This document shows, in pieces, positions 34,526 through 63,256 of a DNA stretch of 64,000 bases (position 1 is the stretch's first letter; the number at the start of each line of letters is the position of its first letter). The DNA lies in assembly GCA_039583875.1 (NCBI GenBank), contig CM077155.1:12813046-12877045 (forward strand), read 5' to 3'. This stretch comes from Platanthera guangdongensis. Lineage: Eukaryota; Streptophyta; Magnoliopsida; Asparagales; Orchidaceae. A program made the position numbers and the translations under genes. The notes below the pieces were generated by a model, which was not told where the DNA came from, searched no databases, and was given only the letters and a program-made list of their open reading frames with translations.

Positions 34526-35140
34526 TGTCGACACCTAGAGAAGCAGTGTCGACACTTATGAAGGCTTGTGTCGACACTGGAGAAAAGCTGTGTCGACACT
34601 TGGAGTAGATTGTGACGACACTTGGAAAGGCTGTGTCGACACCAGAAGTACTAGTGTCGACATACAGATGCAGTGTCGACACACAGAGAAGCGAAGTTGA
34701 TATCAACTGTATCGACACCAACAGGCAGTGTCGACACACAGGAATACTTAGTCGACATCAAATGTGTCGACACATAAAGGCAGTGTCGACACATAGAAGT
34801 ATTGTCAACATCAACTGTGTCGACACACAGGACTTGTGTCGATACACAACAAAGTTTCAACAAAGTTAAAGTAAAAAAGTACTTGTGTCGACATAAAGAA
34901 GATGTGTCGACACACAGCAAGTTCCAACAAAGTTAAAGAAAAGAAGGCTTGTGTTGACACACAGAATCAGTGTCGACACATTCTAAAGAACCAGTGTCGA
35001 GAAGCTGTTACAACAACAAAAGGAGTTGTGTCGACACCACCAAGGCATGTGTCGACACTTAGTTCACTTCTGTCGACACTTAGTCTACTTGTGTCGACAC
35101 ATAATGAAGATCAGTCTCGACACTTTCAGACAGAGACAGT
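34526..35140 (+). promoter_or_regulatory. TGTCGACA palindrome array in the Copia-A 5' LTR
   Basis: I count 18 exact TGTCGACA copies plus about eight one-base variants (for example GTCGAC only, TGTCGATA). Successive starts such as 34526, 34547, 34569, 34591, 34634, 34655, 34674 are 19-22 bp apart, with 43 bp where one is decayed. Spacers vary in sequence. The array ends about 120 bp before the TATA box. Confidence 0.9.
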
Positions 35141-35225
35141 ATTTCAAGAAGTGACTGGATGACTTGACAGCTGCCATTCCTAACCGGTCTACTGCAACTG
35201 TCAAAGCTGTCAGAAGTTTGTTAGA

Positions 35226-35265
35226 AACCGGATCAGCCGGTTACCATGGAGGAAGACTATATAAA
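35226..35265 (+). promoter_or_regulatory. Copia-A LTR core promoter with AACCGG inverted repeat
   Basis: AACCGG, five bases, CCGGTT at 35226-35242 is followed by TATATAAA at 35258-35265. The same arrangement stands at matching places in the other three LTRs of this family, with one base changed in two of them and TATTTAAA in the B copies. Confidence 0.75.
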
Positions 35266-36135
35266 GGCCTTTCTCCTTCAATATAAAGTAACAATTACAG
35301 TGAAGATTGAAGATCTACACAGATATCTAACAACACAACAAGAAGAAGACCTTCGACAAAAGATCTAAGAAGTTGGAGAGAGAGAACTCCTTCTAAGAAG
35401 TGCAGTTGTTGAACCAGGATGCCAAGAAAGATTCAGATTGAGATCTGAATCTCAAGTCAGAAGCTAATTGAAGATCAACTTCTCAAGAGTTCAACCCTAC
35501 TGAGTTCAGATTCAAGAAGCTTTGAAGAAAGCTAAGAGAGGTTGTGCTCTACCATCAGGTTCTTCCAAGAACTGATCAAGAATCCATCCATCCCTTCTCT
35601 CTCTATCTGGGTGGTGGTAAAATACTTTGTAAACACTATTTTCTGTAGGATCTATTCTAGATCGGAGCTGTAAGCCTATTTTATAAAGGCTGAGTGTAGG
35701 AGAATATATTCTCTGAGTGGTAGGCCTTGTGTAGGCTGAGGTAGGGCTGTGAGCCTGAGTTGTAGGAGATTGTGATCTCTGAGTGTAGGCCTTGTTGAAG
35801 GCTGAGGTAGGGCAGATTGCCTGAGTTGTAGGAGCCTTGTTTGGGGTTCTGAGTTGTAAGATCTGAGGATCTGAGGTGAAGTGCAGAAGTTAGGACGAAT
35901 CTAGCACACTGCTAGATAGGCGAAGGGGGAAAGTGGATGTACCCGGACCTTGGGGAGCCACTATAAAAATCTATGTGCAATCTGTGTTGTGTTATTTTTT
36001 GTGAATTTGTGCTGTGTTTTCTGTAATATTTACTGTTGCTAAGTAAATAACTGAATTGAATTGCTGCCTTAAAAGAAAAACAGGAATTATACCTATTCAC
36101 CCCCACTCTATGTGGTAGGCACTAATTATTTCAAG

Positions 36136-36147
36136 TGGTATCAGAGG
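36136..36147 (+). other. Primer binding site of Copia-A
   Basis: TGGTATCAGAGG, complementary to initiator methionine tRNA, two bases past the LTR end. Confidence 0.93.
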
Positions 36148-36214
36148 GAGATTCCTCAAAGAAGGACTTTACAGTCTGAGTGAGATCCATAAGGCAGATT
36201 CAAGAATCAATAAA

Positions 36215-37782: not shown

Positions 37783-39738
37783 TGTTGGGTACATTGGAAA
37801 ATATGTACCAGATTTGAAGAAGCCTCACCCTACTCAATGATATACATCAAGGTGTATTTGATATGTTTTGAGTTTATATGTGCAGGTTAAGTAATTGCAA
37901 GATTGCATGAAAAATTCTAAGTTCATGTGTCGACACCCAGAGAAGAAGTGTCGACACTTATGAAGGCTTGTGTCGACACCTAGAGAAGCAGTGTCAACAC
38001 TTAGAGTAAATTGTGTCGACACCAGGAAAGGCATAGTCGACACCAGAAGAAATGTGTCGATACATACAGATAGTGTCGACACACTGTGAAGAATAGTTGA
38101 CATAAATAGTGTCGACACTAAGAGGCAGTGTCGACACCCAGAGAAGCTTAGTCGACATCAAATGTGTCAACACCAGGAGGCTGTGTCGACATACTGAAGG
38201 CTTTGTCGCCATTAACTGTGTCGACACATAGCAAGTTTCAACACAGTTACAGTAAAGAATTACTTGTGTCGACACAAAGGAGATGTGTCGACACACAGCA
38301 AGTTTCAACACAGTTAAAGTAAAGAAGTACATGTGTCGACACAAAGGAGATGTGTCGATACACAACAAGTTTCAACACAGTTAAAGTAAAGAAGTACTTG
38401 TGTCGACATAATGGAGATGTGTCGACACACAGCAGAATTCAACTAAGTTTTAAGGAAGAAGTACTTGTGTCGACACACTCAATTAGTGTCGACACATTCA
38501 ACAGAAGCAGTGTCGAGAAGCTGTTACAATAACAGAATGAGTTGTGTCGACAACACCAAGGCATGTGTCGACACTTAGTCCACTTGTGTCGACACTTAGT
38601 CTATTTGTGCCGACACATAATGAAGATCAGTCTCGACACTTTCAGACAGAGACAGTATTTTCAAGTAGTGACTTGATGACTTGACAGCTGCCATTTCAGT
38701 CGATCTACTACAACTGTCAGAGCTGTCAGAAGTTCGTTAGAAATCGGATCAGCCGGTTACCTTAAAGGAAGACTATTTAAAGGCCTTTCTCCTTCAACAG
38801 AAGATAATGAAGAAGAATTAGTTACAACAATTAAGAAGAAGATTTAAGAAGATCAATCATTTAGAATAAAGATCCAGAGAAAACTATAAATCAGTATTTT
38901 GAAGAAATTTCAGATTTACTTGGAGTGAGAGAACTCCAGTAATTGAAATCAAGAAAGAGAATTGTTTATTCAAATCTCTTAAGAAGCAGGTTCTGAACCA
39001 GACTGCTAAGAAGGATCCAGATTTATTTCTCTATCTTAAGAAGGAAGTTGCCAGCCGGTCTACTTCAAGAAGATCAACTTTTACTGAGTTCAGACTCAAG
39101 AAGCCTTGAAGAAAGCAAAGACAAAGCTGATCTCAGGAATCAGTACTATCAACAACTGATCAAGAAGGTTGCCCTCTTCATTATCTCAAGCAGAGTGGTG
39201 ATCTAAAATCTTTTATTATCTTTTTGTAAGATCCTAAGGGATCTGAGTTGTAAGCCTAAATTTATAAAGGCTGAGGTAGGGCTTTTGAGCCTGAGAGCAG
39301 GAGAATCTATTCTCTGAGTGTAGGCCTTGTTGAAGGCTGAGGTAGGGCTGTTTAGTTTGAGTGTAGGTCTTATTGAAGACTGAGTGGTAGGGCTTTTTGC
39401 GTGAGTTGTAGGAGTGGGGACACTCTGAGTTGTAGGAACCTATTTGGAGTTCTGAGCTGTAAGATTTGAGGATCTGAGGAGAAGTACAGAAGTTAGGCCG
39501 AATCTAGTACACTACTAGATAGGCGAAGGGGGAAAGTGGATGTACCCAGACCTTGGGGAACCACTATAAACACTGTGTGCACTCTGTGTATGATTGTTAC
39601 TGTAATTGTTGTGCTGATAGCTGTAGAATTTGCATTTGCTGCTTAAATTATTGAACAGTTTGTCTGCCTTTAAAGTAGAAGAAAAATTACACCTATTCAC
39701 CCCACCCCCCTCTAGGTGATTAGACACATATTCTTTCA
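37783..39738 (+). repeat. 5' LTR of Copia-B (1956 bp)
   Basis: TGTTGGGTACATTGG to ATTCTTTCA. It contains the TGTCGACA array (37928-38640) and TATTTAAA at 38774-38781. It is longer than the A LTRs mainly through extra copies of a 67-bp unit within the array. Confidence 0.95.
38215..38450 (+). repeat. 67-bp tandem units in the Copia-B 5' LTR
   Basis: The unit joins two TGTCGACA palindromes with CAAGTTTCAACACAGTTA and AAGTAAAGAAGTAC spacers, three to four times. The matching stretch of the 3' LTR (49024-49290) has the start CGACACAAAG at 49024, 49091, 49158 and 49225, exactly 67 bp apart. The A LTRs have only shorter, diverged versions. Confidence 0.85.
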
Positions 39739-39740
39739 AG

Positions 39741-39752
39741 TGGTATCAGAGG
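39741..39752 (+). other. Primer binding site of Copia-B
   Basis: TGGTATCAGAGG two bases after the LTR end, for initiator methionine tRNA. Confidence 0.93.
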
Positions 39753-39827
39753 GAGGTTACTCAAAAAGGACATAACAGTCTGAGTAAGTTCCTGTAGGCA
39801 GATTGAAATCAATCAAGAATCAAGAAA

Positions 39828-41867
39828 ATGGGTTCTAGTGAGAATCATAAAGAGCTGGGGTCAATGAAATTTCCAATATGTAGAAAAGAGATATTTGGCA
39901 TATGGAAAGAGAGGGTCAGACTCTTTATGGAAGCTTCTGACCTAAGGATATATATTACAGTCAAAGAAGGCCCATATGTGCCAATGAAGATATCCATTCT
40001 GGATGCAAATCAGAAAACTCCTAAGGACTTTTCTAAAATGACTAAAGATGAAATCATCCTGGCCACTATGGACAAGATAGCTCAGAATATAATTGTAAGT
40101 GTCATTGATGATTCAACATTTCAGAACTTAATTCATTGTAAAACCACTAAAGAAATGTGGGACACATTAATAGTCTATATGGAGGGATCAGAGGAAGTAA
40201 GACAAGATAGGAAGTCAATGTAAAATCAAGAATATGAAAGCTTCAGACAAGGAAAGTCTGATAGCATTACAGAATATTACAGGAAGTTCTATAGGATAGT
40301 TAATGAGTTGATGTCCTATGAAAGAGTCTTCAGTAACTATGAGCTGAATGACAAGTTCTTAAGATCCCTGACTAAGGAATGGGACACCAAGATTTGTGCC
40401 ATTAGGGAAGTGGCCAAACTTGCTGATATACCTCCTCCAACTTTGTTTGGTAAACTGTTATCTTATGAGATACAGTTAATGGCTAGAAAGGAGGAAGAGA
40501 AGAATACTAGAGTGGAGCACAAGGAAAAGTCTGTGGCCTTCAAGACTGAAGTCACTAAGATGTATAGAATCAAGTCTCCATCTCCACCTAAAATAATTGC
40601 TGAGGCTGTCACAGATAATTCAGATAGCAAGAATTCTGATAGCAGTGAAAGTGATGAAGACTTTACTGCTTTTCCTAGGTACTTTCAAAGATTTTTTAAG
40701 AAGAGGCAGTGGAGGTCTAAGCCTTCTACTTCTCAGCCAAAAGATGACTACTATCAGAAGAGAAAGTCATCCAGGAATGACATAAACAGGTGCAACTCAA
40801 GCAAAGCTACATCTTCAAAGATTGTTTGTTATTGCTGCAATAGACATGGACATGTAGTGGATGACTGTCCTGAAAAGAGGAAGGAGTCAGCTGACAAAAA
40901 GAAGACTCAGTTTAAGAGCAAAAAAGAAAAGTCCTTTGTTGCTAAGAAAGACAAGAGTCTGACAGATCAGTCATCTTCAGAAACAGAATCAGAAGCTGAA
41001 GCCTTTATTGGATTATTTGCTAAAGAGGAAGAAGATGAGTTCATGCAGCTAATGAACTCCATTTATGAGCATGAAGACCAACAGTACAAGGGACTGATGG
41101 CTATATCTGAAGGAGACAAGAGCCAGGATCAGTCTGGACCAAGTAAGGTACAAAGTTGTTCTTCTAGTTCAATTTATAGTACTGAGTCAGAGTCAGATAC
41201 ATCTGTATCAAGTGATGTGAGTGGGTCTGAATCTGAAGGAGATATTCATCAGTTAATTGATGAATATAGGGTCTTGCTACAGGAACTTAAGAAGAGCAAA
41301 AACTTGGCCAAATCTTAGGCTAAGGAAATTACAGATCTTAAGTTGGCTGCAGTAGATTCTGAGAAGTTGCTAGATCAAAAACTGAATGAGATAGCCAGAC
41401 TGAAAAATATTACAGTTATTCAGATGGGTACTATCACTTTCAAGAATGATCAGATTAGAAATCTGGAGGTTAGACTTCAGAAAGAGAAAGAGATAGTAGC
41501 TAGTTTTTCTAAATCTAAATCTGTTTTACCCTTGATAGATGAGTTTGTATCTCAAAAGGGTAAAGCTGGATTGGGATTTAAGAAAACTGCATGGACTGCA
41601 AAGTCCAAATCTAAAGGCAAAGCCCCAGCACAAAACAAGAAGCCTGCTGTGGATAATTCAGCCAGGGTTGTACCTAAACAAAGGTACAACAAGTTTGAGT
41701 GCTGGTGTTGTGGCAGGGTAGGCCACTTTGCCTTAGATTGTTGGCACAATTCTAGTGTCAAGGAGAGTAGCAAACTGCCTGATAGAAGAGCTATAAGTAG
41801 TTTTGTTAATGGTCAGACTAACTTGTACTAAGGACCCAAAACTCATTTGGGTTCTAAGGTAAGGTAA
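39828..41867 (+). pseudogene. Copia-B gag
   Basis: One frame with stops at 40221, 41316 and 41829. It starts MGSSENHKELGSMKFPICRK; there is a first knuckle CYCCNRHGHVVDDC near 40830 and a second CWCCGRVGHFALDC near 41700. Between them lie acidic Ser-rich and coiled-coil-like stretches. At 41865 a further in-frame TAA stands just before the protease; the matching TAA is present in A (53686), so it may be the natural end of gag. The other stops are not shared with A and look like decay. Confidence 0.9.
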
Positions 41868-41903
41868 TCTTTCTTGTAGGTGAGTCCAAGTTGTCATGCC
41901 CCA

Positions 41904-43319
41904 ATATGGTACTTGGACAGTGGATGTTCCAGGCACATGAATGGAATAAGGTGATTGCTGAAGGACTTCACACATGTGCTGAATGGACCTAAAGTCACCT
42001 TTGATGGTTCAGAAAAAGGGATCATCAAAGGATTTGGTAACATTTCTAGTAATAAGATTACTATCACTCATGTGGCCTATGTAAAGGGTTTGAAACACAA
42101 CCTTATAAGCATAAGTCAGCTGAGTGATTTGGGTTATGACATTTCATTTATTAAGAATGGATGCCATATCAAAAGGTCAAGGGATCAAGAGATCATCTAG
42201 ACAGGATATAGGAAGAGAAATGTTTATTGTCTAAATTTTGAGTGTGAGAACAAGGTTTCTCCTATTTGTCTTGTAGCTGATGAGAGAGTCTCACATTGTG
42301 TTAAATGGCACAAGAGACTGGCCCATCTTAACTACAAGACTATTGGCCAACTCTTTAGCAAAGAGTTAGTGAGGAATGGTCCTCAAATTAAGTGTATAAA
42401 GGATGGGATATGCTCAGCTTGTCAAAAAGGCAAGCAGACCAAATCCACCTTTCATAACCTTGAAAACAAGGATTTTGTGAGGTCTCTATACCTCTTGCAT
42501 ATGGATCTTTTTGGTCCTATGACAGTTCATAGTCTAGGTAGGAAGGTCTACACATTTGTTGTGGTAGATGACTATTCTAGATATTCCTTGGTGTTCTTTC
42601 TAAGACAAAAATCTGAAACCCCAAGTGTCTTATATAGTTTTGTTAAACAAATTCAGAATGAGTTGGACAGTACAGTGGTCAAAATCAGGAGTGACCATGG
42701 TACTGAATTTCAGTCTGAGAGTATGACAAAACTATGTGAAGAATTTGGGATTTTTCAGGAATTTTCCTCACCTAGAACACCTCAGCAAAATGGTATTGCT
42801 GAAAGGAAGAATAGAACATTGATAGAGGCAGGCAGAACTCTATTAAGTGACACTTCTCTCCCAGAATATTTCTGGGCTGAGGCAGTAAACACTGCATGTC
42901 ATATGATCAATAGAAGTACTATCACCAAGTACCACAAAAAGACTCCCTATGAGATTGTGAAGGGCAAAAAACCAAATTTATCCTATTTCAAGATCTTTGG
43001 TTGCAAGTGCTATATACTAAACAATGGCAAGTCTTATCTAACCAAGTTTGCTGTCAAATCTCATGAGGGGATCTTTGTTGGGTACAGCAACAATAGTAAG
43101 GCTTATAGGGTCTACAACTTGATTACTCAAGTTGTAGAAGAGTCTATACATGTAGTCTTTGATGAAACAAGACTGATTAATAGTGAGTTGTCAAGTAGTA
43201 TATGCAGCTCTACAGGTATAAATGAGAGGATGGACAAGCTTACCATTACAGAAGATTTTACAGCAACTCAGCAAGTGGAAAATGGTGGCTGCTGTCCAAG
43301 GGGAGTACAGGGTCTCTAG
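41904..43319 (+). pseudogene. Copia-B protease and integrase
   Basis: The protease core IWYLDSGCSRHMNG is at 41904, followed by a stop at 41952 that A does not have. Next come VKGLKHNLISISQLSDLGYD, a stop near 42198, then from 42369 the zinc module end CSACQKGKQ, LHMDLFGPM, VDDYSRYSLVFF, IRSDHGTEF and RTPQQNGIAERKNRTLIE. The C-terminal part ends KAYRVYNLITQVVEESIHVV. A frame change near 43310 leads to reverse transcriptase. Confidence 0.92.
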
Positions 43320-43339
43320 ATGCTGAAGAAGACCAAGAG

Positions 43340-45037: not shown

Positions 45038-45064
45038 TAGTTTAGCAATATTGGCTAAGTAAAA

Positions 45065-45519
45065 TGGTGTCGACACAAGGAGGTGTCTGTGTCGACACAT
45101 AGAAGTGGTGTCAACATTTCAGAGAAATGATGTCGACACATCTAGACAGTCTGTGTCGACACTTCAGAAAAATAATGTCGACACAACTAGAGTAGGTGTC
45201 GACACATCCAAAAGTAGTGTCGACATATAGGTTCAATACAAATTTCGTCGAGTAGAGTTTCGACTAATCGTCGAGCTGCGATGTATAAGTGTCGACACAT
45301 ATATTATGTCGACTATATTTTTGTTGACACATAGTTGTCGAGACATTAGAAGTAAGTGTCGACACATTTAGAGTATTTTGATGCACCTTTTCATCTTAGT
45401 TTTTAGATAGGTATAAATAGGTCTTCCACATTGTTTGTCGACACGCTCTCCATAGTTTCAAGACCAAACTTGTATGTCGACATCTCTCTCCTCTAAACTC
45501 AAGATTTCTCAAAACCCTA
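45065..45519 (+). promoter_or_regulatory. Internal promoter of the Copia-B accessory gene
   Basis: Directly after pol come about ten TGTCGACA-type palindromes (45065-45370), the same motif as in the LTR. Then follow TATAAATA at 45412-45419, further palindromes in the leader, a CT-rich stretch and the telo-box AAACCCTAA (45512-45520), whose last A is the first base of the start codon. This layout repeats that of the LTR promoter. Copia-A has the same arrangement. Promoter function is inferred from motif order. Confidence 0.75.
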
Positions 45520-48185
45520 ATGGCGCCCAAGCTAGAAGAGAACATCAATGAAGGTTATGATCTCGTGCGACATACCTTTGACGATGCGGGACCAGAAATT
45601 CAAGGTGTTGTAACCCTAGTTGCTGAGACTGGGTTGGATTATTTAGTTTCAGAGCTAATCAAGATTTGGAAGAAGGAAGTACTCGAATTCTTTGGTGCAG
45701 CTACTCTTGATGAAGCTGGTCTTAAGATTAAATCCAAAGTCCATGGAGTAAAAGTAAAACTCACCCAAAAAAGTCTAAGAAAAGCTCTACATCTACCAAG
45801 AACTATAGAGGAAGAAGATGTACCTACATCTAAGACAAGGGAGGCACTGCAATGGTGTGGACTTGATTCAAACATGAAGATTGGATCAATTTTTAATAGG
45901 AAAGGAATGAACATGCAAGGCAAGTTCTTGTCTGAAGTGGTAGGAAAGGTAATTCTGAGCAAGCTAGGTGGGCATGATAGAATATCAGCTCACATGTTCA
46001 GTTTAATGACAAGAATCATTTTCAAGCTCAAAACTGATTGGTCAGCAGTGATGTTTCAGAAGATTAAGGAAAGTCTGAAGAAGCCCAATTTGGGTAGGAT
46101 AATGAGTTTGTACTTGGCTGGAACTATTCCAGAAGTGATGAACCAAGCTGCAGGTTCTAAGATAAATCACATGAGGAGAATGGATTTTAGGATTATCTCA
46201 AAGTGGGATAGGGTGTTAACCAAGGACATTCCTACTCTAGAAAAAGAAGTTCCTCTACTGAAGAAGAAGAAAGCCATAAAGGCACCTGAATCATCTAGTA
46301 GCTCAGAGGAACAAGTAGTTTTCAGTTCTGATAAAGAAGAAGTTGATAATGATGGAAGATCACCAGTAAGGGCTGAAGATGTACAGAGGCAGGGGGAGCA
46401 ACCTTTTGCTAGCCCCATCCACCTGGATCCACTCCAGGGGGATCCTTAACATGTGGATGAACCAACTCACTTAGACAGTGAAAGGGCAACACAAACAATT
46501 CTTGAGGTAATCAATGAAGTTACTCATTCAATTTTCCATATTGAGGATGAAGTATTAACTGAGTCTTTAATTGATATTGATCAGCAAACTCAGTTAAATA
46601 GTCAACCACAAGATGTTGTCATGGAAGATACATTAGTTGCTGATAATGTTCCTGAGATAAGAGAATCTCCAGTCCCTACTCAACATGAGTTTACTCTAGA
46701 TGAGTTGTTCCCTGATTTGTTACAGACTAATTTTATGGGGGAGAAAATAGTTTTTGAGGGGGAACAGGTAGATCTTGAGGGGGAGTATGTAAAGTCTCAG
46801 GAGGAGACTGCTATAAATGAGAATGAGGAGCAAAGGACTCAGGGGGAGCTACCAAGAACTGAGAAGGACTTGCCTCCTAGTCCTAAGGATAGAGTAGACA
46901 TAGCTAGTACTTCAGAATCTGAAGATGCAGCTGAAGTTCAAGCAAAGAAGAGGAAGCTTCAGGTCTTCAAAAGAAGGAGTCAAAGCTACAAGAAGGCTCT
47001 GCAAACAATTGTTCCACAACCTGCCCCAACAACTGACTACAGTTCTTTGTTGGTGGCCTTGCAAATAAAATTAGATGAACAAAGAAAAGCTATGGAAACA
47101 TATATGGATGAGCACCACAAAGATCTTCAATTTACTTTGGCTCAAGATATAAAATCTATTAGATTTGAAGTAAATCAAAATAAGAAGGAAATGACTGACT
47201 GTTTTCATAAAGGAGGTAATGCAGTGGTTTACCTAGCCACTCACCAAGAGAAGATAAAGACACAGGTTGATGACATAGCAGTTAAGCAGGGCTATGTCTT
47301 AGAAAATCAAATAAGAATGAATGAAAACTTGACTGAATCACATAATGTGATTGTCACTGAAATGAAAAATATATCTATTGCACAGACTGCAGTAAGTGCT
47401 ACTGCCAAAGAAGAATTTGATAAGCAATTACAAGAAAGCCTATCTGCTGTTAAAACTGTAATTGAAGATTCTCAAAAGGGTATTACTGCACAGCTCCAGA
47501 AGTTAAAACCTTTTTATAAAGATGGTGTTAACTATCTGAATGCTAAGATCATATTTCAGAAGGATGATCTTAAGGATCATATAGAAAGAGAAGTCATAAA
47601 TGGGGAGAGGGTATTAGTCAAAGCAGGCTCTGACCATGCTAAATGGATTTCCAACAGCATCAGAGCCACCCTTGGATATCCACCCTTGTGTGATGATGAT
47701 AATGTTGCTGAATCTGGTATCAACTCTGCTGTTTTTGGAGGTGAGCAAGCTGAAGTGGCTCAAGTAATTTACCCTCCAGCAGATTTTGAAATGATACATC
47801 AGGAGGTACAATCTATGTATAGCCCTCCTGAGGGTAATAAGAATATTATTTTTGAGAAAGTAGATAAGCCTGTACCTGAGGAAGTATTGACTAAAGAGCA
47901 AGAAGCTCAACTGTCTAAGAAGAGATTTAGAGAACAAGCAGAGTTAAGGCCTGATTTTGAGCAGTGGAGCCCAACTTCTAGAAATATTATTTTGACTGCT
48001 TGGAAGGCTGCAAAGGATAATTTCCTATAGAGGGCAAGTGGTACTCTGAACAAGAGTGGAGAAAACATGAAGCTAGGCAAGAAGCCATAGTACAGTACAG
48101 AAGAAAGGCTAAACTTGGGAAGCTACCTCCTAATGCACAGGAGCCTAACAAGTATTTCCCAAAGGCTTATCATTATTTTGAAAGA
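45520..48185 (+). pseudogene. Copia-B accessory gene (about 888 codons, one stop and one frame shift)
   Basis: Starts MAPKLEENINEGYDLVRHTF and stays in one frame to 48030 except for a TAA at 46447. A one-base loss near 48018 shifts the end, which would run to about 48185. Residues 1-245 form a compact helical domain (IWKKEVLEFFGAATLDEAG, VHGVKVKLTQKSLRKAL, GRIMSLYLAGTIPEV) resembling putative plant transposon protein domains. Next come an acidic Ser/Glu stretch, FEGE-type short repeats, a basic NLS-like AKKRKLQVFKRRSQ near residue 474, and long coiled-coil-like helices (510-690). No signal peptide or membrane segment is seen, so it is unlike an envelope. A and B share the sequence but not the lesions, so their ancestor was intact. 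Function unknown. Confidence 0.75.
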
Positions 48186-48584: not shown

Positions 48585-50445
48585 TGTTGGGTACATTGGA
48601 AAATGTGTACCAGATTTGAAGAAGCCTCACCCTACTCAATGATATACATCAAGGTGTATTTGATGTGTTTTTAGTTTATATGTGCAGGTTAAGTACTTGC
48701 AAGATTGCAGGAAAAATTCTAAGTCCATGTGTCGACACCTAGAGAAGAAGTGTCGACACTTATGAGGGCTTGTGTCGACACCTAGAGAAGCAGTGTCGAC
48801 ACTTAGAGTAAATTGTGTCGACACCAGGAAAGGCAGAGTCGACACCAGAAGAAATGTGTCGACACATACAGACAGTGTCGACACACTGTGAAGAATAGTT
48901 GACATAAATAGTGTCGATACTTAGAGGCAGTGTCGACACCCAGAGAAGCTTAGTCGACATCAAATGTATCGACACCAGGAGGCTGTGTCGACACACTAAA
49001 GGCTTTGTCGACATCAACTGTGTCGACACAAAGGAAATGTGTCGACACACCGCAAGTTTCAACACAGTTAAAGTAAAGAAGTACTTGTGTCGACACAAAG
49101 GAGATGTGTCGACACACAGCAAGTTTCAACACAGTTAAAGTAAAGAAGTACATGTGTCGACACAAAGGAGATGTGTCGACACACAGCAAGTTTCAACACA
49201 GTTAAAGTAAAGAAGTATTTGTGTCGACACAAAGGAGATGTGTCGACACACAGCAGAATTCGACTAAGTTTTAAAGAAGAAGTACTTGTGTCGACACACT
49301 CAATCAGTGTCGACACATTCAACAGAAGTAGTGTCGAGAAGCTGTTACAACAACAGAAGGAGTTGTGTCGACACCACCAAGGCATGTGTCGACACTTAGT
49401 CCACTTGTGTCGACACTTGGTCTATTTGTGTCGACACATAATGAAGATCAGTCTCGACACTTTCAGACAGAGACAGTATTTTCAAGTAGTGACAGGATGA
49501 CTTGAAAGCTGCCATTTCAGCCGGTCTACTGCAACTGTCAGAGCTGTCAGAAGTTCGTTAGAAACCGGATCAGCCGGTTACCTTGGAGGAAGACTATTTA
49601 AAGGCCTTTCTCCTTCAATAGAAGATAATGAAGAAGAATCAGTTACAACAATTAATAAGAGGATTTAAGAAGATCAATCATTGTAGAATAAAGATATAGA
49701 GAAAACTGTAAATCAGTATTTTGAAGAAATTTCAGATTTACTTTGAGAGAGAGAACTCCAGTAATTGAAATCAAGAAAGAGACTTGTTTATTCAAATCTC
49801 TTAAGAAGCAGGTTCTGAACCAGACTACTAAGAAGGATCCAGATTTATTTCTCTATCTTAAGAAGGAAGTTACCAGCCGGTCTACTTCAAGAAGATCAAC
49901 TTTTACTGAGTTCTGACTCAAGAAGCCTTGAAGAAAGCAAAGACAAAGTTGATCTCAGGAATCAGTACTATAAAGAACTGATCAAGAAGGTTGCCCTCTT
50001 CATTCTCTCAAGCAGAGTGGTGATCTAAAATCTTTTATTATCTTTTTGTAGGATCCTAAGGGATCTGAGTTGTAAGCCTAAATTTATAAAGACTGAGGTA
50101 CGGATTTTGAGCCTGAGTGTAGGAGAATCTATTCTCTGAGTGTAGGCCTTGTTTAAGGCTGAGGTAGGGTTATTTAGCCTAAGTGTAGGTCTTGTTGAAG
50201 ACTGAGTGGTAGGGCTTTTTGCCTGAGTTGTAGGAGTGGGTGTAACAACCCCATCCGTTCATATGATATATTCTAGCAGGTCCGGCCGGGGCCCCACAGG
50301 ATATACCACAAAACAGTCGGTGAAGGTACAGGATGATACCAGAGTAGCGCATCGCACCTATCACAAGCATTCTAGCGGAAGCCTAAACTACTTGAACTCC
50401 TCATGAATGTCCAAACATAAAACTCCACATTTTATACACCAGAGC

Positions 50446-50973
50446 AGCTTGCCATACTTGTGATCTGATATGCCTGCAGGGAAGATACCGCTGCCCCGAG
50501 AGGAGGGGTAGGGTCGTTATAATTTGGTCAGCTGAACGCTGACCGTTGCTTTTGTTTGCCACCGTTGGGTGGATTGTCCTTGCACAGGTGCTGGAGAGCC
50601 GAGCGGGTCGCATAGAGGTTGATGCTCCTGCTGGTGCTGCTGCTGCTGCTAGCCCTCGAAGGCTAATGTTCTTTGTGTGTTTTCTTTTCGTGGCCGGCCT
50701 GCGCGCCATTTTGTTAGGCCACTGTTTGAAAGCCCTGTAAGGCCTTATGGCCAACACTTGTGACATGTAGCAGCAGCAGCAGCACCAGCAGGAGCATCAA
50801 CCTCTATGCGACCCGCTCGGCTCTCCAGCACCTGTGCAAGGACAATCCACCCAACGGTGGCAAACAAAAGCAACGGTCAGCGTTCAGCTGACCAAATTAT
50901 AACGACCCTACCCCTCCTCTCGGGGCAGCGGTATCTTCCCTGCAGGCATATCAGATCACAAGTATGGCAAGCT
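50446..50973. repeat. 206-bp inverted repeat with 116-bp loop
   Basis: 50446-50651 is the reverse complement of 50768-50973; every position I compared pairs. It includes a run of GCT/AGC triplets at the inner ends. By comparison with the G1 LTR the right arm is in its normal orientation and the left arm plus loop is the inverted copy. Confidence 0.93.
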
Positions 50974-52259: not shown

Positions 52260-52855
52260 AAAACACACAATTTGACCCGACACGGCCTCGAACACGGCCG
52301 TGTGCCTGGCCGTGTGCCTCAAGCGGTGGTCAACCGACTTATCCAAACCAGTGACACGCCCACGGGACACGCCCGTGTCATTGGCCGTGTCACCAACACG
52401 CCTTCAGACACGCCCGTGTCTGTGGCCGTGTACCTGGGTGAAAAAATCCCAATTCATCCCGAGACTTCACACGGCCTGGGACACGCCCGTGTCCCCAGCC
52501 GTGTGCCCAGACACGGCACCCAGACACGCCCTGTCGAAATCTCGGCGGGCTGAGTTCGTCGCCTGATTGGACACGCCCTGTGACACGCCCGTGTCACAGG
52601 CCGTGTTCAACACTCGACACGCACTTCTCGACACTCGACGATCGTCGAGCAAAAATCGTCGAGAATACGACACGGCCTTGGACACGCCAGTGTCCTGGGC
52701 CGTGTGCCTCCTCTCGACGAATCGTCGAGACCAGAAATCGTCGAGACAAAGCCCAATCGTCGACACAACTCGACACGCCCTGCGACACGCCCGTGTCGCA
52801 GGCCGTGTCACCTGACACGCCCTGGGACACGCCCGTGTCCCAGGCCGTGTCACCC
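52260..52855 (-). repeat. ACACGGCC / GACACGCCCGTGTC palindromes
   Basis: Nested palindromes of about 36-38 bp: ACACGGCCTG, then GACACGCCCGTGTC, then CAGGCCGTGT. Copies stand near 52470, 52570, 52672, 52772 and 52814; the last two are exactly 42 bp apart. TCGACGATCGTCGAG-like palindromes lie between. This is the U3 side of the minus-oriented LTR. Confidence 0.85.
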
Positions 52856-53215
52856 AAATTTGCCTGTTTCAGACCTTTGGGCTGTTACAGTGGGGACACT
52901 CTGAGTTGTAGGAACCTATTTGGGGTTCTGAGCTGTAAGATCTGAGGATCTGAGGAGAAGTGCAGAAGTTAGGCCAAATCTAGTACACTACTAGATAGGC
53001 GAAGGGGGAAAGTGGATGTACCCAGACCTTGGGGAACCACTATAAACACTGTGCGCACTCTGTGTATGATTGTTACTGTGATTGCTGTGCTGATAGTTGT
53101 AGAATTTGCATTTGCTGCTTAAATTATTGAACAGTTTGTCTGCCTTTAAAGTAGAAGAAAAATTACACTTATTCACCCCCCCTCTAGGTGATTAGACACA
53201 TATTCTTTCAGATAG

Positions 53216-56862: not shown

Positions 56863-56889
56863 TTTAATAAAATTGGCTAAGTAAAATGG

Positions 56890-57321
56890 TGTCGACACAA
56901 GGAGTTGTCTGTGTCAACACATAGAAGTGGTGTCGACATTCTAGAGAAATGATGTCGACACATCTAGAAAGTCTGTGTCGACACTTCAGATAAATAGTGT
57001 CGACACATCTAGAGTAGGTGTCGACACATCCAAAAGTGGCGTCGACACTTAGGTTCAACACAGATTTCGTCAAGTGGAGTATTGACTAATCGTCGAGTGC
57101 AAATGTATAAGTGTCGACACATATAATTCAACACTTATGTCGAGACATTAGAAGTAAGTGTCGACACATTAAGAGTATTATGACGCACCTTTTCACCTTC
57201 GTTTTTAGAAAGGTATAAATAGGTCTTCAACATTGTTTGTCAACATGCTCTCAATAGTTTCGAGACCAAAACTTTGTGTTGACATCTCTCTCATCTAAAT
57301 TTAAGATTTATCAAAACCCTA
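56890..57321 (+). promoter_or_regulatory. Internal promoter of the Copia-A accessory gene
   Basis: TGTCGACA-type palindromes at 56890-57170, TATAAATA at 57214-57221, CT-rich leader, telo-box AAACCCTAA at 57314-57322 overlapping the start codon. Same layout as 45065-45519 in B. Confidence 0.75.
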
Positions 57322-60004
57322 ATGGCGCCTTAGCTTGAAGAGAACGTCAATGAAGGATATGAGCTAGTACGCAACGCATTTGACCATACGGAACCAGAAA
57401 TTCAAGCTGTTGTAACCCTTATTTTTGAGAATGGGTTGGAATTTCTAGTCTCTGAGCCAACTAAGATTTGGAAGAAGGAAACACTAGAATTCTTTTGTGT
57501 TGCCACCCTAGATGAAACTGGACTCAAAATTCGATCCACAGTCCATGGAGTTAAGGTGAAAATCACCCAGAAGAGTCTAAGGAAAGCTCTTCGACTACCA
57601 AGAACTCAAGAAGAAGAAGATGTACCTGCATCTAAGACAAGGGAAGCACTTCAATGGTGTGGATTGGATCCCACCTTAAAGATTGGAGCTGCCATGAACA
57701 TGAAAGGAATGAATCAGCAAGGCAAATTTCTTTCAGAAATAGTTGGTAAAGTCATCCTCTGCAAGCCAGGGGGACATGATAGGATTTCTGCCTACATGTT
57801 TAGCCTAATGACAAGAATCATCTTAAGACTCAACACTGATTGGTCAGCAGTGGTGTTTGAAAAGATTAAGGAAAGTATTAAGAAGCCCAATCTAGGAAGG
57901 ATAATGAGTCTTTACTTGGCTGGAACCATTCCTGAAGTAATGGAACAAAGTGCTGGTTCCAAGATTAATCATATGAGAAGGATGGACATCAGGATTATCT
58001 CAAGGTGGGAGAGGGTGTTAACTAAGGACATGCCACTCTAGAGAAGGAAACACCTCCACAGTGGAAGCAGAAGAACGCTAAAAGGGCTCCTGAACCTTCC
58101 AGTGGTTCAGAGGAGCAAGCAGCTTCCATTTCTAATGAGGAAGAAGCTGATAATGCTGGAAGGTCACCAGTAAGAAATGAAGATGCATAGAGGCAGGGGG
58201 AGCAACCATCTGCTAGCCCCATTCACCTGGATCTACTCTAGAGGGAGCCTCAACATGAGGAAGTGCTAACTCACTTGGACAGTGAAATGGCAACACAAAC
58301 TATATTGAGGTAATACATGAAGTAAATCAAACAAATTTCAATAATGAAGATGAAATGCTAACTGAATATTTGATTGATGTTGACCAGCCAACTCAATTAA
58401 ACAGTCAAGCTCAAGATGTTGTAATGGAGGATACATCAGCAGTTGCTGATGCTCCTGAGATAAGAGAATCTCCAGTCCCTTCTCAACAAGAATTTACCCT
58501 AGATGAGTTCTTCACTTCTATGGAGCAAGAGACTCAGGGGGAGAAAGCAGTTTTTGAGGGGGAGAACATTATTTTTGAAGGAGAGCAAGTTTACCTAGAG
58601 AAGGAGCAAGCTCATCTTGAGGGGGAGAATACAATGACTGAGGAGGAGCAAAGGACTCAGGGGGAGCTACCTAAGACTGCACAGAAATTGCCTCCAAGTC
58701 CTAAGGATAGAGTTGAGATAGACAGTTCCTCAGCATCTGAGGATGAAGAAGCTTCAAGAGCCAAGAAAAGGAAGTTCATGGTCTTCAAAAGAAGGAGTCA
58801 AAGCTACAAGAAGGCACTGCAAACAGTTGCTCCACAGCCTGCCCCAACAATTGATTATAGTTCTTTATTAGTATCCATGCAAGTGAAGTTGGATAAGCAA
58901 AGAATTGCAATGGAGAAGTATATGGATGAGACACACAAAGATCTCCAATTCTCCTTGGCTCAAGATATCAAATCCATAAGATTTGAGGTGAATCAAAATA
59001 AGAAGGAAATGACTGATTGTTTCCACAAAAGAGATAATGCAGTGGTTTTCCTAGCTACCCATCAAGAAAAGATAAAGACACAAGTTGATGATATAGCTCT
59101 TAAGCAAGGCTATGTCCTAGAGAATCAACTGAGAATGAATGATTATCTAACAGAATCACATAATGTAATTGTAACAGAGATGAAGAATATTGCTACTGCA
59201 CAGACTGCAGCAAGGGCTACTGACAAGGCAGAATTTGTCAAGCAATTACAAGAAGGCGTAGCTGCTGTCCAAACTGCTATTACAGATTCTCAAAAGACCA
59301 TTTCTGGCCTACTACTCAAGTTAAAGGTATTTTATAAGGATGGTGTTAATTTTCTGGATGAACAAATCAGATTTCAAAAGGATGACCTTAGAGATCATGT
59401 GGTCAGAGAAGTCATAAAGGGGGAGAGAGTACTAGTCAAAGCTGGATTTGATCATGCTAAATGGATTTCCAATAGCATCAGAGCCACTCTTAGATATCCA
59501 CCCCTGTGTGATGATGACAATGTGGCTGAATCTGGAATATATCCTGCTGTTTTTGGAGGTGAGCAAGCTGAAGTTGCTCAAGTAATCTATCCCCCAGCAG
59601 ATTTTGAGATGATTCATCAAGAAGTACAACCTATGTATAGCCCTCCTAAGGGTAATAAAAATATTATCTTTGAGAATGTAGATAATCCTGTACTAGAGGC
59701 AATATTGAAAGAACAAGAAACTCTTTTGTCCAAGAAGAGATTTAGAGAATAGGCAGAGTTAAAGCCAGATTTTGAGCAGTGGAGCCCAACATCTAGGAAT
59801 ATCATCCTGACTGCTTGGAAAGTTGTGAAGGACAATACCCTAGATAGGGGTAAATGGTACTCTGCACAAGAATGGCAAAAGCATGAGTCCAGGCAAGAAG
59901 CTATAGTTCAGTACAGAAGAAAGGCAAAACTTGGGAAGTTACCTCCTAATGCACAGGAGCCTAGCAAATATTTCCCTAAGCCCTTTCACTACTTTGAAAG
60001 ATAA
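57322..60004 (+). pseudogene. Copia-A accessory gene (broken)
   Basis: ATG at 57322, but the fourth codon is TAG (57331). After that the frame is clear to 58041 (LEFFCVATLDETGLKIRS, VHGVKVKITQKSLRKALRLP). It shifts between 58041 and 58355 and continues to a stop at 59750, and beyond it to TAA at 60002 (GKWYSAQEWQKHESRQE, KLGKLPPNAQEPSKYFPK). It has the acidic FEGE repeats in more copies than B (FEGENIIFEGEQVYLEKEQ), the basic AKKRKFMVFKRRSQSYKKAL and the helical C-half. Its lesions differ from those in B. Role unknown; see the B copy for domains. Confidence 0.75.
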
Positions 60005-60391
60005 AAAATAAGGGCTGAAGAACTGAAGAAGAAAGATCTTAAGGGCAAGAAGCCTGCTGATGACACAGATATTCCTATACAAGCTAAAGTTCAATCAGGC
60101 AAAGGAATAGTTTTCAAGGAGCCAGAGCTGCCTTAGATTAGTTTTACTAGATTTTATAACATTATAATCTTTTGTGTTAAAATCTATGTAAACTTTTGTT
60201 AAAGAAACTATTGGAAGTTGAAACAAAACTATAATGAATGCTCATTGTGTTAGCATACTTATTCTGTGATGAAATATCTTTTATGATTTGTTTTAAGTAT
60301 TTACCTTGTCATATAATATTTTTATACATCATAATGTGTATTTGTTATGAATGGTGTATATCATTGACTAAGGGTTATGACTTCTCCAAAT
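60005..60391 (+). other. 3' untranslated part of Copia-A
   Basis: Codons still readable to TAG at 60134, then AT-rich sequence without a gene up to the polypurine tract. Confidence 0.6.
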
Positions 60392-60401
60392 AGGGGGAGA
60401 T
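60392..60401 (+). other. Polypurine tract of Copia-A
   Basis: AGGGGGAGAT directly before the 3' LTR. Confidence 0.9.
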
Positions 60402-62113
60402 TGTTGGGTACATTGGAAAATGTGTACCAGATTTGAAGAAGCCTCACCCTACTCAATGATATGCATCAAGGTGTATTTGATGTGTTTTGAGTTTATATGT
60501 GCAGGTTAAGTAATTGCAGGAAATGCAGAAAAATTTCTAATTCCATGTGTCGACACCTAGAGAAGAGTGTCGACACTTATGAAGGCTTGTGTCGACACTT
60601 GGAGTAGATTGTGTCGACACTTGGAAAGGCTGTGTTGACACCAGAAGTACTTGTGTCGACATACAGAGGCAGTGTCGACACACAGAGAAGCGAAGTCGAT
60701 ATCAACTGTGTCGACAAACAGGAATACTTAGTCGACATCAAATGTGTCGACACATAAAGGCAGTGTCGACACACAGAAGTATTTGTCAACATCAACTGTG
60801 TCGACACACAGACATGTGTCGACAGACAGCAAAGTTTCAACAAAGTTAAAGTAAAGAAGTACTTGTGTCGACATAAAGAAGATGTGTCGACACACAGCAA
60901 GTTCCAACAAAGTTAAAGAAAAGAGGGCTTGTGTCGACACACAGAATCAGTGTCGACACATTCTAAAGAAGCAGTGTCGAGAAGCTGTTACAACAACAAA
61001 AGGAGTTGTGTCGACACCACCAAGACATGTGTCGACACTTAGTTCACTTATGTCGACACTTAGTCTACTTGTGTCGACACATAATGAAGATCAGTCTCGA
61101 CACTTTCAGACAGAGACAGTATTTCAAGAAGTGACTGGATGACTTGACAGCTGCCATTCCTAACCGGTCTATTGCAATTGTCAAAGCTGTCAGAAGTTTA
61201 TTAGAAACCAGATCAGCCGGTTACCATAGAGGAAGACTATATAAAGGCCTTTCTCCTTCAACAAAAAGTAACAATTACAGTGAAGATTGAAGATCTATAC
61301 AGATATCTAACAACACAACAAGAAGAAGACCTTCGACAGAAGATCTAAGAAGTTGGAGAGAGAGAGGTCCTTCTAAGAAGTGCAGTTGTTGAACCATGCT
61401 GCCAAGAAAGATTCAGATTGAGATCCGAATCTCAAGTCAGAAGCTGATTGAAGATCAACTACTCAAGAGTTCAACCCTACTGAGTTCAGATTCAAGAAGC
61501 TTTGAAGAAAGCTAAGTGAGGTTGTGCTCTGCCATCAGGTTCTTCCAAGAACTGATCAAGAATCCATCCATCCCTTCTCTCTCTATCTGGGTGGTGGTAA
61601 ACCACTTTGTAAACACTATTTTCTGTAGGATCTATTCTAGATCTGAGATGTAAGCCTATTTTATAATGGCTGAGTGTAGGAGAATATATTCTCTGAGTGG
61701 TAGGCCTTGTGTAGGTTGAGGTAGGGCTGTGAGCCTGAGTTGTTGGAGATTGTGATCTCTGAGTGTAGGCCTTGTTGAAGGCTGAGGTAGGGCAGATTGC
61801 CTAAGATGTAGGAACCTTGTTTGGGGTTCTGAGTTGTAAGATCTGAGGATCTGAGGTGAAGTGCAGAAGTTAGGCCGAATCTAGCACTCTCTTAGATAGG
61901 CGAAGGGGTAAAGTGGATGTACCCGGACCTTGGGGAACCACTATAAAAATCTGTGTGCAATCTGTGTTGTGTTATTTTTGTGAATCTGTGTTGTGTTATC
62001 TGTAATATTTACTGCTGCTAAGTAAACAACTGAATTGAATTGCTGCCTTAAAAAGAAAAACAGGAATTACACCTATTCACCCCCCCTATAGGTGGTAGAC
62101 ACTAATTCTTTCA
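60402..62113 (+). repeat. 3' LTR of Copia-A (1712 bp)
   Basis: TGTTGGGTACATTGG to ATTCTTTCA. Palindrome array at 60547-61120, TATATAAA at 61238-61245. It shares small insertions and spacers with the 5' LTR at 34380 and lacks the 67-bp expansion of B. Confidence 0.94.
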
Positions 62114-62475
62114 AATGATGTCTAACAATCGAGACTTGAGAAGTCGCCCACTCGCCTCTTGTCGAGAAGGCCAAGTGGATAGTCTGGAGACTCCCGCCTG
62201 AAGTCTTCCAATATCCCCAACGTCACCCCACTTCCCTGATCGGGAGAACCTCCCAAGCCAGCTCCTTCTCCTTCATTTCCAGCCATGAGACCTAACTTGA
62301 GATTTTCATGTATCTGCTACGGTTCACGCTCACCGCACCAGAAATTTTGAAGCCAAAAACTGGCCTCAACGAGAGTTCAGACCTTGGGGTGTAGTTAATG
62401 CCAACTTCTCCCAAACCTTGACCCCTAACTAGTGATGAAGAACCTAGAAATATTTCAAAAAACCGAAGTAACAAA

Positions 62476-63256
62476 CTCGAGTGAAGAAGTGACTACTCGA
62501 GTACTTTACAGAACTACTCGAGAGAGATGAAGATAACTACTCGAGTACTTAGAGACAGTTACTCGAGTAACCTGAAGAGAACTACTCGTGTATATTCTTG
62601 AAGAAAATTGAGAAGTTGATCAACTACTCGAGTACCAAAAATACCTACTCAAGTACTTAAGGAATTACACGTGAAGTGGAATTAGAATACTCGAGTACAA
62701 GTAATACTACTTGAGTAAATGAGAATAAGCTACTCGAGTGGTTGATGAACTACTCGAGTCAGGGACTAAGAATATTTTCTAGAATAGAATTCTGGGTTAC
62801 TCGAGTAGTGAAGTTGAACTACTCGAGAGGATAAAGACTACTCGAGTATATAGAAATGACTACTCGAGTAATTGACTTCGAAATTTTGAGGGAAGAAAAT
62901 TATGGTTACTCGAGTAACAGCTTGAACTACTCGAGTAGTCGATGAACTACTCGAGTACTAGACTTGACTACTCGAGTGAGAAATAATTTCATGAGGTGCA
63001 TACTTTTGTAACTCGAGACAGAAGGTATAAACTACTCGAGTACTATAAAGTACTTCTCGAGTAATTTACTTAGAATATATCTGGAGAAGAAAATCATTTA
63101 ACCCGAGAATAAGAGGGAATCTACTCGAGTAGTTGTCTTAACTACTTGAGAGCCATAAGTTGACTACTCGGGATCTATCATTCTTACTCGAGTAAGAATA
63201 ATTTTACTCGAGTATTAACTAAGCTATTCACTCGAGTAGGTATAGAACTACTCGAG
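62476..63256 (-). promoter_or_regulatory. CTCGAG palindrome array in the Copia-D LTR
   Basis: I count about 25 exact CTCGAG, mostly as TACTCGAGTA, plus several one-base variants. Starts at 62476, 62496, 62517, 62540, 62562, 62585 (variant), 62627, 62648 (variant), 62690, 62710 (variant), 62733, 62753 are 20-23 bp apart, or 42 bp where one is missing. It lies in the expected U3 part of a minus-strand LTR. Confidence 0.92.

What the first reader, a model, noticed from the sequence alone, without database searches (positions are those of the whole stretch)
34526..63256. Unrelated LTR families each carry a private short palindrome, often phased at about 21 bp upstream of the TATA box
Seen directly: TGTCGACA in Copia-A/B (steps 19-22 bp), CTCGAG in Copia-D (20-23, or 42 when one is missing), TATCGCC..GGCGATA in Copia-2 (20-23), TACCGC..GCGGTA in G1 (exactly 21), and GACACG..CGTGTC in the solo LTR at 50241 (42 in one pair). 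In A, B, Copia-2 and G1 the cluster sits in U3 upstream of a TATA box. Two helical turns are 21 bp, so the sites would face one side of the DNA, as for a dimeric binding protein; 21-24 nt is also siRNA size. Copia and gypsy share no LTR ancestry, so the pattern arose repeatedly. The known parallel is VANC anti-silencing proteins of Arabidopsis VANDAL elements, which bind short motifs accumulated in their own family. The link here is inference.
Basis: partly seen in the sequence, partly recalled or inferred. Interest (0 to 1): 0.92.

Follow-up and report, generated by a model that had tools for sequence, protein, structure and literature searches.

The report
Phased palindrome arrays in orchid retrotransposons
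Several families of jumping genes in this orchid genome each carry their own short symmetrical DNA word, in some of them repeated every 21-22 letters, in front of their start switches; this enlarges a known but unexplained feature of one retrotransposon group and shows in the best-studied families that the words are kept by selection, most likely as landing sites for a paired DNA-binding protein.

Summary
The palindrome arrays are real. Seven families in the window have one (A and B are relatives; Copia-2 is weak). One word per family in U3 near a TATA box is already known as Sirevirus 'RM boxes' (Bousios 2010); A/B and Copia-2 look Sirevirus-like. In the window the 21-bp phase holds for D, is not significant in A/B LTR arrays, and fails in G1 and the solo LTR. 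Best reading: sites for a dimeric trans-acting regulator; whether host or element encodes it is open.

The parts
34525..35123 (+). Copia-A 5' LTR U3 array, 24 GTGTCGACAC sites (up to 2 mismatches, 15 perfect); LTR about 34380-36133; TATA box at about 35258
37927..38639 (+). Copia-B 5' LTR U3 array, 30 sites (16 perfect); TATA-like TATTTAA about 134 bp downstream; B is inserted in A with target-site duplication GATAG
48729..49460 (+). Copia-B 3' LTR U3 array, 32 sites (23 perfect)
60547..61103 (+). Copia-A 3' LTR U3 array, 22 sites (14 perfect); TATA at about 61238
45067..45483 (+). Copia-B internal array, 14 sites (6 perfect), between the end of the RT/RH coding region and the extra ORF; TATA (GGTATAAATAGG) at about 45412, two sites lie downstream of it
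56889..57167 (+). Copia-A internal array, 11 sites (6 perfect; 13 if the scan runs to 57300); TATA at about 57214
45520..48030 (+). Copia-B extra ORF, interrupted by an in-frame stop at 46447-46449; N-terminal part weakly like PF20167 (E 0.0023, below the curated cut-off); relatives found only in Platanthera in the searches made
57334..59749 (+). Copia-A extra ORF in pieces (57334-58038, 58286-59749 and others); first piece weakly like PF20167 (E 0.0049, below cut-off)
62474..63258 (-). Copia-D U3 array, 27 TACTCGAGTA sites (up to 2 mismatches, 16 perfect), 20-24 bp pitch and multiples; LTR starts at about 63584 on the minus strand after a one-base-shorter PPT
63796..63999 (-). End of the ORF preceding the D LTR; it resembles the end of the A/B extra ORF by eye only, tblastn gave no match
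19600..19880 (-). Copia-2 5' LTR U3, TATCGCC.GGCGATA dyads (1 perfect, 2 with 3 mismatches), next to AATATAAAAACC
11882..11940 (+). Copia-2 internal: two TATCGC..GCGATA-like dyads just before AATATAAAACC, on the upstream side of an antisense ORF; the blind dyad search found nothing recurrent here
12546..13184 (+). Copia-2 antisense ORF, weak PF20167 match (E 1.2e-5, below the curated cut-off)
31133..31616 (-). G1 (Ty3/gypsy) LTR U3 array, 9 TACCGCNNNGCGGTA sites (up to 2 mismatches); TATA (GGGTATATAGCC) at about 31047
24640..25081 (-). G1 other LTR, same array, 8 sites; TATA at about 24553
52291..52839 (-). Solo LTR S (50241-52889, target-site duplication GTGGG) U3 array, 9 GACACGNNCGTGTC sites (6 perfect); no 21-bp phase
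8213..8913 (.). Start of the insert (8213-10355) in the Copia-2 3' LTR, carrying the S-type word (7 sites)
20010..21167 (+). Array E: GTTGAGNNNNCTCAAC, 22 dyads, mostly 42 + 60 bp steps (102-bp units), outside the Copia-2 LTR; by eye probably U3 of a further LTR that begins at about 6793

Best explanation
The arrays are promoter-proximal clusters of binding sites for a dimeric, sequence-specific trans-acting regulator, one specificity per retrotransposon lineage. In the Copia families they are Sirevirus RM boxes or a variant of them. Shown: recurrent same-word dyads; position before a TATA box in several LTRs and, in A/B-type and one D-type element, again before a TATA box and the extra gene; a preferred pitch of 21-22 bp for three words genome-wide; conservation of the word against the linkers in A/B-type elements; the same word at LTR and internal array in A/B and in D, different between them. 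Inferred: that a protein binds, that it is a dimer, that neighbours on one helix face act together, and that it raises transcription of genomic RNA and of the extra gene. Host transcription factors are the likeliest readers overall, because a gypsy family without an extra gene (G1) also has an array.
For: Dyad searches against shuffles; 46 of 640 windows with 5 or more same-word dyads in 20 further 10-kb stretches, against 0 of 640 shuffled windows with 4 or more. Spacing: TGTCGACA 347,047 pairs at 21 bp, 459 at 25; TACTCGAGTA 31,201 at 21, 40,014 at 22, 62 at 18, 62 at 25; TTCTCGAGAA 5,574 at 21, 10 at 25. Selection: motif/linker divergence ratio 0.10-0.27 between A and B LTRs (8 ordered comparisons, p 3e-6 to 2e-8), 0.60-0.76 within each element (p 0.31-0.78); internal arrays of five elements 0.00-0.33 in all 20 ordered comparisons. 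Internal TATA GGTATAAATAGG in 5 of 5 A/B-type internal promoters. D-type element L046: the TACTCGAGTA array both in its LTR and before its extra ORF. With the motif masked, internal and LTR arrays of B and of L046 share no significant similarity (best E 0.36 and 0.11).
Against: No binding data. A/B LTR arrays taken alone show no significant 21-bp period and somewhat alike linkers; G1 and S show no period. Genome-wide pair counts pool many copies related by descent. G1 and Copia-2 arrays do not exceed shuffles in the exact-match test; between the two G1 LTRs motifs change faster than linkers (ratio 1.65-1.72), so selection on the G1 word is not shown. No TATA found after S, E or the window's D array. 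RNA of the A 3' array folds far better than shuffles (z -9.35), as palindromes must, so a structural role is not excluded.
Confidence: 0.65

Rival explanations
1. Special case of the best reading: the extra ORF of each Sirevirus-like lineage encodes the cognate factor, so that element, LTR array and internal array form a self-regulating, VANC-like set that changes specificity together.
For: Same word at LTR and before the extra gene in A/B and in D-type L046, different between the two. Against B, L046 is 72% alike in RT, 61% in INT, 42% in gag, but 29-34% in the extra-ORF N-part. Words are private.
Against: No DNA-binding domain: PF20167 matches are below the cut-off and structure models useless (pLDDT 36 and 42). 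gag also diverges fast. G1 has an array and no extra ORF. In 4 of 4 gypsy elements with a strong PF20167 gene no array of 3 or more dyads lies in the 4.1 kb read, which covers the upstream side of that gene but not their LTRs. L034, with an extra ORF, has no clear internal array. Bousios 2010 lists four ENV-less Sireviruses with RM boxes in the LTR.
Confidence: 0.25
2. The palindromes act as RNA or DNA secondary structure (hairpins between neighbouring sites), either for the element's RNA or as the source of host small RNAs that start silencing.
For: The A 3' LTR array folds with z -9.35. In maize, small RNAs concentrate on Sirevirus palindromes (passages of PMC10760457).
Against: What is conserved is one fixed word, with a fixed pitch in several families, not pairing alone; being a small-RNA source gives the element no reason to keep the word.
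Confidence: 0.13
3. Neutral tandem duplication of a short unit that happened to contain a palindrome.
For: TRF calls arrays with periods of 18-23, 55 and 67 bp; A/B linkers are somewhat alike (0.34-0.38, expected 0.27-0.28); E is a 102-bp tandem repeat.
Against: D linkers are close to random (0.31, expected 0.29) while sites and pitch persist; in A/B-type internal arrays linkers differ by 14-41% and motifs by 0-5%; within single elements A and B motifs and linkers decay at rates that do not differ significantly.
Confidence: 0.06
4. The CpGs themselves are the point: CpG-bearing palindromes are the switch read by CG methylation, in an element body purged of CpG.
For: B gag-pol 0 CpG in 5,158 bp; L044 and L039 gag-RT 0 where 187 and 181 are expected; 67 of 99 CpGs of B and 56 of 95 of A lie in motif sites.
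Against: The purge is not general: L046 (D type) gag-RT has CpG o/e 0.50, gypsy bodies 0.56-0.85. E dyads are not centred on CpG, nor strictly those of S and G1. CpG positions change between LTR pairs only 1.2-3.7 times as often as other C/G positions show transitions, so methylation-driven loss alone does not obviously explain zero.
Confidence: 0.12

Closest known systems
Sirevirus RM boxes (Bousios et al. 2010, PMC2829016; abstract and seven sections read)
   Same: One palindrome per element, 8-32 copies, clustered in U3 before a TATA box, with further copies upstream of the envelope-like gene.
   Different: A/B and D words have a TCGA core, not CGG-CCG (the published exception is Tnd-1, ACAATCGATTGT). 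The sections read report no spacing rule, say that no internal promoter was conclusively identified, and call the motif Sirevirus-specific; here a 21-22 bp pitch, an internal TATA and gypsy arrays are seen.
VANC/VANDAL anti-silencing (Hosaka et al. 2017, PMC5735166; passages read)
   Same: Family-private short motifs in dense arrays in non-coding DNA of the element, tandem-repeat turnover, a fast-diverging element gene.
   Different: VANDALs are DNA transposons; the VANC21 motif YAGTATTAY is not palindromic and lies in one orientation; there binding and loss of methylation were shown, here nothing of that kind.
Maize Sirevirus palindromes as small-RNA targets (Bousios 2016, not held; as cited in passages of PMC10760457)
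   Same: Palindrome clusters in LTR cis regions.
   Different: No small-RNA data for this genome were available here.
Retand tandem repeats and antisense ORFs (PMC11963269, passages read)
   Same: Family-specific tandem repeats and extra, mainly antisense ORFs between pol and 3' LTR, some predicted to bind DNA.
   Different: Ty3/gypsy elements; in the passages read the repeats are not described as dyads before a promoter.

Membership tests
Sirevirus (Copia-A/B) | PPT AGGGGGAG exactly 10 bp upstream of the 3' LTR | tested here: met
   48575 with LTR start 48585 (B), 60392 with 60402 (A)
Sirevirus (Copia-A/B) | Several PPT copies clustered near the 3' LTR | tested here: inconclusive
   4 octamers in B and 7 in A after pol, but only the terminal one within 0.5 kb of the LTR; the rest lie in the extra-ORF region
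Sirevirus (Copia-A/B) | LTR end CA, then ATTGG or AGTGG, then PBS TATCAGAGC | tested here: met
   TTCA-AGTGG-TATCAGAGG at 36139 and 39744: 8 of 9 PBS bases
Sirevirus (Copia-A/B) | poly-C integrase signal near the LTR 3' end | tested here: met
   CACCCCC at 36098, 39703, 53174, 62078; section 13 of the 2010 paper, which defines the signal, was seen only as a heading and in the abstract
Sirevirus (Copia-A/B) | Ty1/copia pol of the Sirevirus clade | tested here: inconclusive
   RVT_2, rve, Retrotran_gag_2 found; no tree with reference clades was built
Sirevirus RM boxes (A/B) | Palindromic repeats, at least 8 copies, in U3 before TATA | tested here: met
Sirevirus RM boxes (A/B, D) | Core CGG-CCG | tested here: not met
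   A/B GTGTCGACAC, D TACTCGAGTA; one published exception, Tnd-1. Hence filed as a variant
Sirevirus RM boxes (A/B, D) | Extra copies upstream of the envelope-like gene | tested here: met
   A, B, L038, L039, L044 and D-type L046; that the extra ORF is the 'envelope' gene of that paper was not tested
Sirevirus RM boxes | Confined to Sireviruses (2010 claim) | tested here: not met
   Dyad arrays in LTRs of the gypsy element G1 and downstream of gypsy integrase in L030
VANC-like system | Element-encoded protein binds the private motif | not testable with these tools
   no binding data; structure models failed
VANC-like system | Private motif arrays in non-coding parts of the element | tested here: met
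VANC-like system | Loss of DNA methylation caused by the protein | not testable with these tools
   no methylation data

The most novel reading that the evidence does not exclude
LTR retrotransposons of this orchid run a self-encoded specificity system: the fast-evolving extra ORF makes a dimeric DNA-binding protein whose private palindromes, pitched at two helical turns, sit at both the LTR promoter and the protein's own internal promoter; word and protein switch together between lineages, and in one lineage the rest of the element has shed CpG so that the CpG-centred sites hold most of the few CG-methylatable places left. A VANC-like anti-silencing or activating circuit in retrotransposons.
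Probability: 0.22. Interest if true: 0.92.

Novelty: new variant of a known kind. Interest (0 to 1): 0.72.

Why it matters
Palindrome clusters private to each element have been described in Sirevirus LTRs since 2010; the paper itself left their function open. A pitch of two helical turns across unrelated words and both LTR superfamilies, a second same-word array at an internal promoter, and measurable selection on the word turn 'what are RM boxes for' into a testable question: find the protein that reads two matched arrays. With several lineages in one genome carrying different words and different extra proteins, host-factor and self-encoded models make opposite predictions.

Tried and rejected
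Rejected: counting A and B as independent cases; a 21-bp rule for G1 and S; chance; neutral repeat growth as sole cause; PF20167 as a marker for internal arrays (none upstream of the gene in 4 of 4 gypsy elements read, LTRs not read). Led nowhere: an RT search and an RM-type pattern in viral contigs (the 22 pattern loci were not studied); three protein searches gave only Platanthera proteins (in 17 and 58 only about 8,000 candidates were scored); two structure models of the extra-ORF N-part, pLDDT 36 and 42, so no fold search was run. The D peptide at the window's end resembles the A/B extra-ORF end by eye, but tblastn did not find it, so the D extra ORF rests on L046. Spacings 31 and 42 bp could not be counted (pattern limit); counts at 19 bp (TGTCGACA) and 20 bp (TACTCGAGTA) did not complete. 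Survey positions were round coordinates chosen by me, not drawn at random; some arrays found there (for example in L028, L032, L042) are not shown to be LTRs. Papers: PMC2829016 abstract and sections 6, 9-12, 19, 20 read; PMC10760457, PMC5735166, PMC12844716, PMC11728184, PMC9023349, PMC11963269 passages only; Bousios 2016 (PMC4728375) not held. I found no report of the 21-bp pitch or of the CpG-free bodies in the listings, which cover open-licence papers only and were read as listings, so absence from print is not shown.

Full report
What was checked. The window is a nest of LTR retrotransposons in a plant genome of 4.25 Gb in 274 contigs, where it lies at G000:C9:12813046-12877045. Two contig lengths, C15 183,157,185 and C18 152,486,348, equal the contig lengths listed with two Platanthera guangdongensis proteins (P0009; P0002), so the host is very probably that orchid. 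Its genome paper gives LTR elements as 73.24% of the genome (passages of PMC9023349).

Anatomy. Copia-A (LTRs about 34380-36133 and 60402-62113) holds Copia-B (37783-53210) nested in it with the duplication GATAG; B's 3' LTR holds a solo LTR, S (50241-52889), with the duplication GTGGG (boundaries read by eye). A and B are related (LTRs 76-78%, internal parts 84%). Copia-2 lies on the minus strand (LTR 18888-20009) and sits, with the duplication CACTC, inside another array, E. G1 is a Ty3/gypsy element whose 4.3 kb internal part holds gag, RT, RH and integrase pieces and has no room for a further gene. D enters the window from the right on the minus strand.

Are the palindromes real? Yes for most. 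A search over all half-sites and gaps, tolerant of mismatches, recovers one dominant dyad in A (22 copies), D (25), E (22), S (9), the S-like insert at 8213 (7) and both G1 LTRs (8 and 9, TACCGCN3GCGGTA) where 30 shuffles of each give at most 4; the Copia-1 LTR and two R/U5 controls do not exceed their shuffles. With exact matches only, both G1 LTRs and Copia-2 do not exceed shuffles. Copia-2 is marginal (4 against 3), and its internal region alone shows nothing recurrent. The words are private: each is concentrated in its own family, with a few scattered or cross matches when mismatches are allowed. All 99 exact TGTCGACA lie in A/B: 80 in U3 and 19 in two internal clusters.

The second array. 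In A and B the internal cluster stands between the end of the RT/RH coding region and an extra ORF of roughly 900 codons, before a TATA box. The same TATA context, GGTATAAATAGG, is present in 5 of 5 A/B-type internal promoters looked at (A, B, L038, L039, L044), with the ATG about 100 bp further on. With the motif masked, internal and LTR arrays of B, and of L046, share no significant similarity. In Copia-2 two dyads of the LTR type precede a TATA-like box upstream of an antisense ORF; this case is suggestive only.

Prior art. Bousios et al. 2010 (PMC2829016) describe this for Sireviruses: 13 elements, nearly each with its own palindrome, clustered in U3 before TATA, and in envelope-containing elements further copies upstream of the envelope gene (77 of 79 linker copies). 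So the private palindrome in Copia LTRs is known. By PPT position, LTR/PBS junction and poly-C stretch A and B fit Sireviruses, though the multiple-PPT cluster is not seen, no reference tree was built and the CGG-CCG core is absent. The 2010 sections read give no spacing rule, say that no internal promoter was conclusively identified, and call the motif Sirevirus-specific.

Spacing. Of 12 arrays tested against random placement (no correction), D has a clear 21-bp comb: 22 of 26 intervals within 2 bp of a multiple of 21, p=0.0005, linkers nearly random, and decayed traces at empty positions. A/B LTR arrays mix 15-24, 31-36 and 47-49 bp (p 0.07-0.28); internal arrays give p 0.03 and 0.13; G1 (0.31, 0.55) and S (0.48) none; the S-like insert 0.02 on 7 sites; E has 42/60-bp steps (p 0.0015 at 21.25), as expected of its 102-bp repeat. 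Genome-wide the preference is sharp for three unrelated words: TGTCGACA 347,047 pairs at 21 bp and 459 at 25 bp; TACTCGAGTA 31,201 at 21, 40,014 at 22, 62 at 18 and 62 at 25; TTCTCGAGAA, the core of the word of the gypsy LTR in L030, 5,574 at 21 and 10 at 25. That all TTCTCGAGAA pairs belong to gypsy LTRs was not tested. These counts include copies related by descent, so they measure abundance, not independent origins; the linkers in the listed part of the output are diverse.

Survey. In 20 further 10-kb stretches at round coordinates, 46 of 640 windows hold at least 5 same-word dyads; of 640 shuffled windows none holds 4. 15 of 20 stretches have at least one such array, among them GTGTCGACAC (5 stretches), TACTCGAGTA (L046, twice), GTTCTNNAGAAC, mostly GTTCTCGAGAAC, at exactly 21, 42 and 63 bp downstream of gypsy integrase and before a TATA (L030), and the S word (L031, L040). 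Not all are shown to be LTRs.

Change of word. L046 is a D-type element: RT 72%, integrase 61%, gag 42% and extra-ORF N-part 29-34% identical to B or A. Its LTR array and its array before the extra ORF both carry TACTCGAGTA. So between the A/B and D lineages the word differs at both places. A factor acting in trans on both promoters explains this simply. It is one comparison of two lineages. A third lineage, L034 (extra ORF 36-37%), has yet another dyad in U3 and no clear internal array.

Selection. Choosing sites in one sequence and measuring change in the other, the motif/linker divergence ratio is 0.60-0.76 between the two LTRs of one element (A, B), and 0.10-0.27 between A and B; for internal arrays of five elements it is 0.00-0.33 in all 20 ordered comparisons. 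For D against L046 it is 0.18-0.19, but the linkers are near saturation and the alignment leans on the motifs. Between the two G1 LTRs motifs change faster than linkers (ratio 1.65-1.72, p 0.04-0.06), as expected for CpG-rich sites after insertion; selection on the G1 word is not shown.

CpG. B gag-pol has no CpG in 5,158 bp, A pol 3 in 3,490; L039 and L044 gag-RT none (181 and 187 expected), L038 3. In B's gag, integrase, RT and extra-ORF C-part reading frames CpG is missing inside codons and across codon borders. Of 99 CpGs in B 67, and of 95 in A 56, lie in motif sites. CpG positions change between LTR pairs only 1.2-3.7 times as often as other C/G positions show transitions, which seems too little for zero CpG by mutation alone; this is an inference. 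The purge is not general (L046 gag-RT o/e 0.50, gypsy 0.56-0.85).

Mechanism. Most likely: phased sites for a dimeric trans-acting regulator of both promoters (0.65). Host factors fit a gypsy family without an extra gene; a self-encoded factor fits the matched change of word (0.25, as a special case). The extra protein shows no known DNA-binding domain: PF20167 matches are below the cut-off, and two models failed. Four gypsy elements with a strong PF20167 gene show no array in the stretch read, which leaves out their LTRs. RNA structure or small-RNA sourcing (z -9.35) remains possible but explains the fixed word and pitch less well.

Verdict. The phenomenon is a new variant of a known kind, with the two-turn pitch, the gypsy arrays, the matched internal promoter and the CpG-free bodies as the parts I did not find described.

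Noticed in passing
39743-44900; also L039, L044, L038: gag-pol of A/B-type elements is practically free of CpG (0 in 5,158 bp in B) while CWG sites are not scarce (36.6 per kb).
   Followed up: partly
20010-21167 and 7240-7364: Array E: 102-bp tandem repeat with TTGAGTGCACTCAA dyads, split by the Copia-2 insertion; by eye likely U3 of a further LTR starting at about 6793.
   Followed up: partly
11882-13600: Copia-2 carries an antisense ORF with a weak PF20167 match, preceded on its own strand by LTR-type dyads, a TATA-like box and, by eye, a possible splice donor.
   Followed up: partly
8213-10355: Insert in the Copia-2 3' LTR: 70-73% like parts of the G1 LTRs in reverse orientation, yet carrying the S-type word; G1 and S also look alike downstream of U3 by eye, so U3 words may turn over faster than the rest of the LTR.
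   Followed up: partly
L042:6188-6623: Dense CTGGACTGAATCAGTCCAG palindromes in what looks like an insertion within gypsy pol.
   Followed up: no
about 50430-50970: Inside the solo LTR S, two stretches of roughly 200 bases read as reverse complements of each other (a foldback), seen by eye.
   Followed up: no
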